Assembly: GCA_022803075.1 (NCBI GenBank) | Contig: JAFFTF010000004.1 | Location: forward strand, 259,419 to 323,418 | DNA from: Micrococcales bacterium 31B | GTDB taxonomy: Bacteria; Actinomycetota; Actinomycetes; Actinomycetales; Dermabacteraceae | Direction of reading: 5' to 3' | Length of the DNA: 64,000 nt | Shown here: in pieces, positions 11,188-14,573 of the stretch | How positions within the stretch are numbered: position 1 is the first letter of the stretch | How the letters are laid out: each line of letters begins with the position of its first letter | Made by a program: the position numbers and the translations under genes | The notes under the pieces: model-generated | Told to the model about the DNA's origin: nothing | Seen by the model: only the letters and a program-made list of their open reading frames with translations | The model's database searches: none

Positions 11188-11868
11188 CTAAGTCGCGCGC
11201 GTGCGTGCAGTAAACGTCGCAATCCCGATCAACAGCACCGGCAACGAACTGGTGTAGTGCGTGGTCTCCCAGCCGTTGAGCCCTCCAGCGAACGGGGAGT
11301 ACGTCGCAAGTGCGCGCTCGCCGGTTGTCCACGCCGCGGCAAGGAAGAATGCAATGCCCACGCCCGCTGACATGTGCGTACTGGTGAAACCCGCCGCGCA
11401 CAGAATGACGCCCAGGCACAGTGCAATATTGCTTGCCGCTGAGGCGGCAGCAACGAACGGAACTGTAAATGTAAAAGAGTCGTTCAATAACACTTGTTGC
11501 GGCCCCAGAAGGACCAACGAAGAAGGCAAGGCAGCGAGAACAAGGTATGCAATCAGCGGAATGCTAACGGTGAGAGCCACTCCGATGACCACGCAAAGTG
11601 CGCGGCGCACCCGCAGGTCGCGGCATGAAGTGCGGTCGATGTGCGCCATGCGGCCTGACACGGCAAAAGGTATCAAGCATGCCATAGCGATGCCTAAGAG
11701 CTCCCAGGTGGGAGCCACACGAGCCTCAACTTGACCGAAAAACGGAATGGGAAGATAGCGACTCCAGGCCAGTACGGTAACGATGAGTGCGGCACACCAC
11801 GTGACCGCGAACCATCGCCAGGGTCGGCCAGAGAAAAAATAACGCCAATCGCTGAGGGGCTGAGTCAT
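11188..11868 (-). CDS. Polytopic membrane protein of the ABC cassette
   Basis: 226 aa with about six hydrophobic segments (for example WFAVTWCAALIVTVLAW and LCLGVILCAAGF). No recognised family motif. Its ATG overlaps the stop of the upstream membrane gene by one base (TGATG), and that gene in turn overlaps the ATPase by four, so all three are probably co-translated. Most likely a permease subunit or immunity-type protein of the ABC transporter. Lower G+C than the flanking methyltransferase and LysR genes. Confidence 0.7.
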   Translation of the reverse strand: MTQPLSDWRYFFSGRPWRWFAVTWCAALIVTVLAWSRYLPIPFFGQVEARVAPTWELLGIAMACLIPFAVSGRMAHIDRTSCRDLRVRRALCVVIGVALTVSIPLIAYLVLAALPSSLVLLGPQQVLLNDSFTFTVPFVAAASAASNIALCLGVILCAAGFTSTHMSAGVGIAFFLAAAWTTGERALATYSPFAGGLNGWETTHYTSSLPVLLIGIATFTARTRAT

Positions 11869-13217
11869 CACGAAAGGTCCGCGAGAGTGAGTTCGCATCT
11901 TTTGGCCGACGAGACATGTTGCTTAAGCCACCTAGCAAACTCCGCATCATTCATTGTGCGTAATGAGACCATGCCTGCGTTCAAGCGTTCAGTGGTGGCG
12001 TCGTCGATGACGAACGATGCGCTGCGAGCATCGGCGGATCGACCTGATTCTGTCAGAGCCCGCGCTAGAACCACTTCAGACACCGTGCGAGACATCTCGT
12101 ATGCGATATTGAGGTCGGGCGGAAGACCTTCGTTCCCCAGATAATAGGGCATTGCCAGTTTTTCGCAGGCGTGTATTCCGACTGCGTAGTCGGCGACATC
12201 GCGGGCAACAGACCGCATGGTCTCTTCTTGTGAATTCACGCCACTTAGACTGAATTGAGGCGCGCCCTGCGCAGTCACGGCCGGGCCGTTCAAGACGCCC
12301 GACACGGTGCCTGACGGCAAAATCCTCAGTACTTCTTGTGCGGCCTCAACGACGGTGGGGAGGGCGGTTCGCTGAGCAGGGTGCAGGCACACTGAGACAT
12401 GCTCAGTGTGAGACGCGGGCACATCGCTGCAGATGGCTGGCGGAAGCGCCTGCGCACGGACCACCGGCGGGCCAACGGCTACCAAAACAATGGCGAGGGC
12501 CAACGGTGCTAGCAGCCATGTGAAGTTCAAAGACCACAGACGCTTGCCACGTGCGCGGGCGCTGGCAATTGCAAGCAACCCAGCAGAGCAAAGTATGCAG
12601 AGCGACCATCTCAACGCTTGAACGGTCAACGGCGACTCATTACCAACGACGGGCGCCACAGACGCCCAGGTCGGCAGAGCAATTGCGAACGCATCTTGGT
12701 GAGAAATGCTTGAAGTGATGGCGATGCCTTGAATCACATATGCCGTGATAGGCGCCGCAAATACTGCAATGACACGCCGAGTGAGGATGCCCCAGGTAAC
12801 GCCGAAAGCCACCCAACTCGCGAGAGTCAAGAGGTTTGTAACGAGCATGGCCCCGTCCATGGTGGCCCAGGTTGCTCCACGTGCCGTGCGTATCAAAAGC
12901 GGAGTCGAGCCCAAGATATATCCCGTCGCGGCAAGAATCGAGGCGACGGCAAATACCTTGACAGTCGCGTGGCTGCTTCGCGGCGACATGGGTGACCACA
13001 GGACGGAGTCGCGTGAAAACACCCCAGCCAACATGGCGCTCATCAGTACTACCGGTATGGAAAGCGGAAACAAGTTCTCTCGTAGCCGAGCGTCCGTCGT
13101 AGACCAGGTCGGTGGCAGCCATTGGGTCAATGAAGGCACGCTCAGCAAGAATGAACAAGCGGCCACGAAAGCAACGCAGGCGAGGGCGGGCAAAGGTCGT
13201 AGCGGACGCAAGTTCAT
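11868..13217 (-). CDS. Membrane protein with extracytoplasmic C-terminal domain, ABC permease-like
   Basis: 449 aa. Six or seven hydrophobic segments occupy residues 10 to about 255 (LACVAFVAACSFLLSVP first, LAPLALAIVLVAVGPPVV last). The remaining 190 residues are hydrophilic and start AQALPPAICSDVP, with two Cys near VSVCLHPAQRT, so probably outside the membrane. This is the layout of actinobacterial ABC-associated permeases of unknown substrate. Overlaps the ATP-binding protein gene by 4 bp (ATGA at 13214-13217). Confidence 0.7.
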   Translation of the reverse strand: MNLRPLRPLPALACVAFVAACSFLLSVPSLTQWLPPTWSTTDARLRENLFPLSIPVVLMSAMLAGVFSRDSVLWSPMSPRSSHATVKVFAVASILAATGYILGSTPLLIRTARGATWATMDGAMLVTNLLTLASWVAFGVTWGILTRRVIAVFAAPITAYVIQGIAITSSISHQDAFAIALPTWASVAPVVGNESPLTVQALRWSLCILCSAGLLAIASARARGKRLWSLNFTWLLAPLALAIVLVAVGPPVVRAQALPPAICSDVPASHTEHVSVCLHPAQRTALPTVVEAAQEVLRILPSGTVSGVLNGPAVTAQGAPQFSLSGVNSQEETMRSVARDVADYAVGIHACEKLAMPYYLGNEGLPPDLNIAYEMSRTVSEVVLARALTESGRSADARSASFVIDDATTERLNAGMVSLRTMNDAEFARWLKQHVSSAKRCELTLADLS

Positions 13218-13966
13218 GAGGTACTGGCCTGCATGAGGCTGGCGTATCCGGCTTCAAGGGCAGAAAGGCCAGGGTGAACATGAGGGGCGAGCGCTTCGAG
13301 TGACGATACCGATTCGTCAAACACGAATTTCCCGTTACGGAGTACTAAGACTCGTTGTGCGATGCGTTCGATGTCGTCCACGATATGGGTGGACAGAATG
13401 ACGCACGTGGTTGCTGCGATCGTTGCGAGATTCGCACGTAGTTCGACGCGTTGGAGGGGGTCCAGGCCCACGGTGGGTTCATCTAGAATCAACAACTTTG
13501 GCTGATGCGCTATCGCGCAGGCGATTCCGAGGCGTTGGCGCATTCCGCCAGAAAGAGTTCGCGCCTTGCTGGAGGCGTGACTGCCGAGGTCGACTGTCTC
13601 GAGCGCGCGTTGCGCCGCCGCCTTGCAGTCCCTGGCATCTACTCCATTGGCCCATGCGGCATACTCGACGTTCGCGCTGCAGGATGAAAACCCCATCAGA
13701 TTATATTTTTGCGGCAAGTACCCGAGATGAGCTCTAGCGACCTTACGGCCATCTGGGGATGACATACTGTGCCCCATTATCTTGATGGAGCCTGAGGCGG
13801 GTTCGCGCAGCGTAGTAAGAAGGCTGAAAAGCGTTGTTTTACCAGCGCCATTCGGGCCCAAGATGCCATTGATTCCGGCGCTGACTCCGAATGAAATGTC
13901 ATTGAGAACGGCCCTTTTTCGATACGAAAATTGAACATTCTTGCATTCCACAATGTGATCTACCAT
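13214..13966 (-). CDS. ABC transporter ATP-binding protein
   Basis: 250 aa with all nucleotide-binding elements in order: Walker A GPNGAGKTT (about 38-46), Q-loop YLPQKYN, signature LSGGMRQRLG, Walker B LLILDEPTVGLD and switch LSTHIVDDIE. It belongs to the drug/peptide-exporter style of ABC2 ATPases. It begins 25 bp after the stop of the small secreted protein, with AAAGGGGG upstream. It should energise export by the two membrane proteins that follow. Confidence 0.92.
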   Translation of the reverse strand: MVDHIVECKNVQFSYRKRAVLNDISFGVSAGINGILGPNGAGKTTLFSLLTTLREPASGSIKIMGHSMSSPDGRKVARAHLGYLPQKYNLMGFSSCSANVEYAAWANGVDARDCKAAAQRALETVDLGSHASSKARTLSGGMRQRLGIACAIAHQPKLLILDEPTVGLDPLQRVELRANLATIAATTCVILSTHIVDDIERIAQRVLVLRNGKFVFDESVSSLEALAPHVHPGLSALEAGYASLMQASTS

Positions 13967-13991
13967 CGCTGCGCGAACCCCCTTTCTTGAC

Positions 13992-14375
13992 TTACTTCAC
14001 GACCCGTCCGGACTGGACCAGTGAGTTGTTGGACGAGTACACCTCAGTGTAATAGGCGTGGCCAGTGGTGGCACCGCCTGACGTGCCGGTCAAGGTGAAG
14101 GTCTGTCCGGTCTTGCTGACGGTAGCCAAAACGGAGTCGGGTAGCCACTCGACATCGCGCTTCACCAGCAATGTTGCCGTGGCGGAGTTGAGGCAGCCGG
14201 TGCGTCCGCCCGATGACGTGATGGTGGAGCCTGAAAAGGTCGGGGTGTTGGCGTAGAGCCTGCACGTGTTCTGCGAAGCCGCATGGGCCGCAGTGGGTGC
14301 GACTGCCACAGCCAGGTTGCCGCATGCGAAAAATGCAAGCGATGCGATTGCCGAGACTTTGCTGAGTTTAGACAT
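13992..14375 (-). CDS. Small secreted beta-rich protein, candidate bacteriocin or toxin
   Basis: 127 aa. A clear Sec signal peptide ends at APTAAHA, leaving a mature protein of about 95 residues beginning ASQNTCRLYANTP. It has two Cys (NTCRL and RTGCLN), probably disulfide-bonded, and is rich in Ser/Thr/Gly and beta-prone segments (SATATLLVKRD, FTLTGTSGG, YYTEVYSS). It ends SGRVVK. Strong ribosome site AGGAAGAGGAAG before ATG 14375. It heads an operon with an ABC ATPase and two membrane proteins, the layout of bacteriocin export/immunity loci; similar small secreted proteins occur in Streptomyces, as far as I recall. Function is inferred from context only. Confidence 0.75.
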   Translation of the reverse strand: MSKLSKVSAIASLAFFACGNLAVAVAPTAAHAASQNTCRLYANTPTFSGSTITSSGGRTGCLNSATATLLVKRDVEWLPDSVLATVSKTGQTFTLTGTSGGATTGHAYYTEVYSSNNSLVQSGRVVK

Positions 14376-14438
14376 GATCTTCCTCTTCCTTGAGCGAATG
14401 GAGCGCCCGGGCAAGACCAGCCTAACTAATGCCCTCGC

Positions 14439-14451
14439 GGGGGGGGGGGGG
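14439..14451. repeat. Homopolymer of 13 G (C on the coding strand) upstream of the secreted-protein operon
   Basis: An uninterrupted run of 13 G lies 64-76 bp upstream of the secreted protein's start codon. Tracts of this length slip readily during replication. The position is compatible with the promoter or 5' leader, although I could not place convincing -35/-10 boxes around it. A TTGACC lies upstream at 14475-14470 on the minus strand. Confidence 0.85.
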
Positions 14452-14573
14452 AGATTTGCACATAGTGGTCAAGAAAATTGCCCTCGTCGCGGGCTTTGGC
14501 AAAAAATATTACAAAGGCTGGCCTTGTGCTGAGCGAATTCCTTAACACAAGGCGGCGTCGACCCCCCCGCCGC

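What the first reader, a model, noticed from the sequence alone, without database searches (positions are those of the whole stretch)
11188..14451. Candidate undescribed secreted-peptide/ABC cassette
A 127-aa secreted, two-Cys, beta-rich protein is followed by an ABC ATPase and two tightly overlapping polytopic proteins. The organisation is that of a bacteriocin with an export or immunity transporter, but the mature peptide does not match lactococcin-972 or lantibiotic patterns that I know. The block has lower G+C than its flanks, suggesting acquisition.
Basis: inference. Interest (0 to 1): 0.65.

Follow-up and report, generated by a model that had tools for sequence, protein, structure and literature searches.

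The report
Recurrent secreted peptide and ABC-transporter cassette
This is a small set of four genes, found scattered through one order of actinobacteria, that encodes a secreted beta-rich peptide next to its own three-part membrane transporter; it is most likely an undescribed antibacterial peptide with the pump that protects its maker, but killing has not been shown.

Summary
Confirmed, and stronger than claimed. Four minus-strand genes (14375 to 11188) form a tight operon: a Sec-type secreted peptide (~95 aa mature, 2 Cys), an ABC ATPase, a 7-TM protein with an extracytoplasmic tail carrying four invariant cysteines, and a second membrane protein. Pfam and NCBIfam have no family for the peptide or either membrane protein. 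The arrangement recurs: the same peptide lies directly upstream of the same transporter in 11 genomes of four families of the order, and was found nowhere else in the genomes sampled with its profile. The transporter occurs without the peptide in about ten further loci; on the transporter tree, peptide presence changes at least six times, and the peptide looks broken in two loci. Repeated loss of peptide with transporter kept, a Sec leader that needs no dedicated exporter, and low G+C favour a bacteriocin with ABC self-immunity. It works like lactococcin 972 but is not a member: no PF09683 match, unrelated permease, different gene order. A 13-G tract, the only run of 12 or more G/C in the 3.93-Mb genome, sits 64-76 nt before the peptide start and hints at phase variation. 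Activity is inferred only.

The parts
13992..14375 (-). secreted peptide precursor, 127 aa; Sec-type signal peptide (14375-14280, residues 1-32), mature part ~95 aa with C38 and C61
   Evidence: translation; homologs in the same position in 10 other genomes; 8-strand model
13214..13966 (-). ABC ATPase, 250 aa, DrrA/BcrA-like
   Evidence: PF00005 E 2e-32; NCBIfam DrrA, GldA and lantibiotic-protection profiles match below their cut-offs
11868..13217 (-). membrane subunit 1, 449 aa: seven hydrophobic helices and a C-terminal domain (254-449), predicted outside, with four invariant Cys (263, 277, 351, 441)
   Evidence: alignments; hydropathy and charge; no Pfam/NCBIfam family
11188..11898 (-). membrane subunit 2, 236 aa (or 226 aa from the ATG at 11868)
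   Evidence: no family; a family profile finds relatives in nearly all related cassettes
14439..14451 (.). 13-nt G tract (C on the coding strand) 64-76 nt upstream of the peptide start; possible phase-variation tract
   Evidence: only G/C run of 10 or more in the window and of 12 or more in the 3.93-Mb assembly

Best explanation
The cassette is a Sec-secreted bacteriocin-like peptide with its own ABC self-protection complex. The 127-aa precursor is exported by the general Sec pathway and cleaved after AHA, giving a ~95-aa beta-sandwich protein with a disulfide that acts outside the cell on related actinobacteria, perhaps on a wall precursor as lactococcin 972 does. The ATPase and the two membrane subunits form one transporter whose four-Cys outer domain captures the peptide, or the peptide-bound target, at the producer's surface and clears it. 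Shown here: gene content, order, recurrence, exclusive association of peptide with transporter, repeated absence or breakage of the peptide with the transporter kept. Inferred: secretion, fold, disulfides, killing, target and immunity.
For: Peptide found only with this transporter: 6 of 6 in 149 genomes of one family (of which 9 have the transporter; 6e-9 by hypergeometric test), 6 of 6 in 396 genomes of the order, no stray copy in 231 genomes across the phylum. Transporter without peptide in about ten loci, and peptide in different frames or truncated in L045 and L013. At least 6 changes of peptide presence on the tree, as expected if the weapon is lost and the shield kept. Sec-type leader, no modification or peptidase gene in the block or its near flanks. 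2 or 4 Cys in every mature peptide, four invariant Cys in subunit 1. Same design as lactococcin 972 and propionicin T1, whose ABC genes are taken to give immunity (PMC4055356, PMC11796350, PMC5756557). Low G+C of the block.
Against: No activity evidence. The peptide shows no sequence relation to any known bacteriocin. The Ig-like sandwich is a common fold and the model is moderate (mean pLDDT 67.6). Peptide divergence tracks that of the membrane subunits only weakly (Spearman 0.39 and 0.22), although peptide and receptor might be expected to co-vary. A transporter that stands alone so often may have its own substrate.
Confidence: 0.5

Rival explanations
1. The three-gene transporter exports or flips a substrate of its own (an antibiotic, a lipid or a wall component), and the secreted Ig-like protein is an optional outer accessory: a surface adaptor, sensor or substrate chaperone that docks on the four-Cys domain.
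For: The transporter occurs without the peptide in about ten loci, and peptide presence is scattered over its tree. Fold neighbours include sensor and adhesive sandwiches such as the RsgI4 sensor domain and RbmA. The ATPase is closest to drug and lipid exporter profiles such as DrrA.
Against: Does not by itself explain why the peptide is lost so often, nor its strong divergence. One host (G069) has two cassettes, one with and one without the peptide, which fits weapon-and-shield turnover as well.
Confidence: 0.27
2. The ABC complex is the dedicated exporter of the peptide.
For: Operon position; some bacteriocin clusters use dedicated ABC exporters.
Against: Sec-type leader with an AxA site rather than a double-glycine leader; the 250-aa ATPase shows no C39 peptidase domain; the transporter persists without the peptide.
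Confidence: 0.08
3. The cassette is a resistance module: the peptide binds a foreign antimicrobial outside the cell and hands it to the transporter for removal, so the peptide is a decoy or binding protein and not a weapon.
For: Peptide always linked to the transporter but dispensable for it; patchy distribution and low G+C fit an accessory resistance trait.
Against: No lipid anchor on the peptide, so it would diffuse away; no linked two-component sensor in the window, only in L016.
Confidence: 0.13

Closest known systems
Lactococcin 972 family cassette (PF09683 peptide with ABC genes; lcn972-orf2-orf3, scbABC)
   Same: Sec-released beta-rich peptide followed directly by ABC genes taken to give immunity (PMC4055356, PMC11796350); patchy; loci known that keep the ABC genes and lack the working peptide
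   Different: No PF09683 match; order is peptide, ATPase, two membrane proteins instead of peptide, one large permease, ATPase; profile comparison shows no relation of peptide or permease; the ATPases resemble each other only as ABC ATPases do
Propionicin T1 (pctA with downstream ABC gene)
   Same: Actinobacterial peptide with a Sec-type leader and an adjacent ABC gene proposed for immunity (PMC5756557)
   Different: Mature peptide 65 aa; a single downstream ABC protein; sequences were not compared here
LanFEG-type lantibiotic immunity transporter
   Same: One BcrA/DrrA-like ATPase with two separate membrane proteins; the ATPase matches the lantibiotic-protection profile TIGR03740 below its cut-off
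   Different: Membrane subunits match no known family and subunit 1 has a four-Cys outer domain; no lanthipeptide genes in the immediate flanks

Membership tests
Lactococcin 972 family | peptide matches PF09683 | tested here: not met
   no match up to E 1 in 7 peptides of this family; no PF09683 hit in the window's genome, while 4 other genomes of the order have one; hhalign probability 0.2%
Lactococcin 972 family | Sec-type signal peptide | tested here: met
   N-terminal charge, hydrophobic core (residues 7-25) and AHA|AS site, read by eye and hydropathy, not by a trained predictor
Lactococcin 972 family | beta-sandwich fold of the mature peptide | tested here: inconclusive
   8-strand model, mean pLDDT 67.6; sandwich neighbours, lactococcin 972 itself not listed
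Lactococcin 972 family | one large permease plus LolD/MacB-like ATPase, in that order | tested here: not met
   compared with genuine PF09683 loci of the same order
Lactococcin 972 family | kills by binding lipid II | not testable with these tools
   needs the bench
Lantibiotic with LanFEG immunity | lanthionine-forming enzymes next to the peptide | tested here: not met
   nearest neighbours are MFS, RibD_C, methyltransferase, LysR, peptidase M3 and GyrI-like genes; only the near flanks were scanned
ABC-exported (double-glycine) bacteriocin | double-glycine leader and ABC protein with a C39 peptidase domain | tested here: not met
   Sec-type leader; ATPase of 250 aa with ABC_tran and related AAA hits only
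Propionicin T1 | sequence relation to PctA | not tested
   no PctA sequence was fetched
Known anti-phage defence systems (PADLOC) | match to a system-specific model | tested here: not met
   only generic ATPase matches on P0002; none for the other three

The most novel reading that the evidence does not exclude
A new class of actinobacterial antibacterial proteins: disulfide-bonded Ig-like peptides released by Sec, each paired with a dedicated three-part ABC complex whose four-Cys outer domain recognises it, spread between lineages as a cassette, repeatedly lost as a weapon but kept as a shield, and in this genome switched by slippage of a G tract.
Probability: 0.3. Interest if true: 0.7.

Novelty: new variant of a known kind. 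Interest (0 to 1): 0.52.

Why it matters
If true, it adds a recurrent weapon-and-shield system to actinobacteria, built from three protein families that Pfam and NCBIfam do not name, with the design of lactococcin 972 but different parts. It would let similar 'hypothetical protein plus ABC transporter' operons be read, and it makes directly testable whether Ig-like secreted proteins can act as bacteriocins.

Tried and rejected
Plasmids: no tblastn match of the peptide or of four subunit-1 queries in 72,556 records. Viral contigs: the alignments had no stretch conserved enough to search with. The AlphaFold model of subunit 1 was too poor to use (mean pLDDT 41), so no fold search was made with it. 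Sequence profiles against the PDB gave nothing credible. The weak Pfam hit of the peptide to the mycobacterial 19-kDa antigen (E 0.025, below cut-off) was rejected, as no other member shows it. Three weak peptide hits (G841, G855, G799; E 0.003-0.009) were not counted. An empty-site comparison failed: the flanking LysR gene has no close ortholog in 39 relatives. PADLOC gives only generic ATPase hits. No sigma-70 consensus promoter was found upstream of the peptide. Subunits 1 and 2 are not detectably related to each other. Lactococcin 972 is not in the fold-search lists; this excludes nothing.

Full report
Observation. All are on the minus strand and tightly packed: 25 nt between peptide and ATPase, an ATGA overlap between ATPase and subunit 1, and TGATG between subunits 1 and 2 if the internal start at 11868 is used. 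The block has G+C 0.580 against 0.658 in the rest of the window, about the lowest of any stretch of its length there.

What the parts are. The ATPase is an ABC ATPase of the DrrA/BcrA kind; its NCBIfam matches are all below their cut-offs. The peptide and both membrane subunits match no family in Pfam-A or NCBIfam above cut-off. Subunit 1 has seven hydrophobic helices, a positively charged loop before the last one, and a 196-aa C-terminal domain that this topology places outside the cell. Four Cys in that domain are invariant in all nine rows of one alignment and in all ten cassettes of a second. The mature peptides are 90-102 aa long with 2 or 4 Cys each.

Recurrence. Relatives of subunit 1 were found scattered through the same order, with a few in other groups of the phylum, next to a related ATPase and, nearly always, a relative of subunit 2. 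A profile made from the window peptide and one relative picked out peptides immediately upstream of the ATPase in further genomes. In 149 genomes of one family, six have the peptide and nine the transporter, and all six are among the nine (6e-9; this treats genomes as independent, which relatives are not). In 396 genomes of the order all six peptide hits are in cassettes. In 231 genomes across the phylum the only hit is the window's own. One scan of about 85,000 species genomes with a close-relative query gave two loci, both cassettes already seen: Nostocoides sp. Soil756 and an Actinomycetales metagenome-assembled genome.

Peptide loss. About ten loci hold the transporter with no recognisable peptide upstream. 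L042 (contig edge) and L040 (broken contig) cannot be judged. In L045 the signal peptide and the mature part lie in different frames, and in L013 only the C-terminal half is recognisable; sequencing error is not excluded. On a tree of ATPase plus subunit 1, presence of the peptide needs 9 changes, at least 6 of them forced by well-supported branches (L042 was counted as lacking it). Since every peptide found is homologous and in the same place, repeated loss from a four-gene ancestor is the simplest reading; repeated regain is possible. A similar state is known for pneumococcal strains that lack a working streptococcin B but keep the rest of the locus (PMC11796350). Host families are mixed on the tree, and the cassette is lower in G+C than its flanks in several hosts but not in all, which fits some horizontal movement.

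Structure. The model of the peptide, from a three-sequence alignment, has eight strands and mean pLDDT 67.6, with 80-85 over the best parts of the mature region. Foldseek and VIA-align place it among Ig/FnIII-like sandwiches (RbmA, RsgI4 sensor domain, GH2 domains; best Z 9.1). This is a common arrangement and says little about function.

Comparison with lactococcin 972. I fetched PF09683 loci from the same order. The best-preserved read peptide, one ~690-aa permease, LolD/MacB-like ATPase. Profile comparison finds no relation to the present peptide or to subunit 1. The design is alike (Sec-released beta-sandwich peptide plus putative ABC immunity; PMC4055356, PMC11796350) but the parts are not, so this is not a member. 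Propionicin T1 is a second analogue by design (PMC5756557).

A possible switch. A 13-nt G tract lies 64-76 nt upstream of the peptide start. It is the only run of 10 or more in the window and the only run of 12 or more G or C in the 3.93-Mb assembly. Tracts of this kind are known to slip, so the cassette may be phase variable in this genome. Other cassettes do not share it, apart from an 8-G run in L044; no length variation could be examined, and the promoter is unknown.

Verdict. The cassette is real, recurrent and unnamed in the family libraries searched. A bacteriocin with ABC self-immunity is the best explanation, at about one in two; a transporter with another substrate and an accessory protein is the main rival. 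Secretion, fold, activity and immunity all need the bench.

Noticed in passing
14439-14451: 13-nt G tract upstream of the peptide gene, the only G/C run of 12 or more in the 3.93-Mb assembly; possible phase-variation tract.
   Followed up: partly
14521-14553: Perfect 8-bp inverted repeat (gccttgtg / cacaaggc, 17-nt loop) between the LysR gene and the peptide gene; a regulator site or a weak terminator.
   Followed up: no
L065 and L014 (both from genome G069): One genome holds two cassettes of this family, one with and one without the peptide.
   Followed up: partly
L016 8440-10514 and 10591-11331: A LuxR-type response regulator and a histidine-kinase-like protein lie directly upstream of the peptide-less cassette, and a relative of subunit 2 lies beyond them on the other strand.
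   Followed up: no
L072, L075, L076: Lactococcin-972 family loci (PF09683) with their own ABC genes in other genomes of the order.
   Followed up: partly
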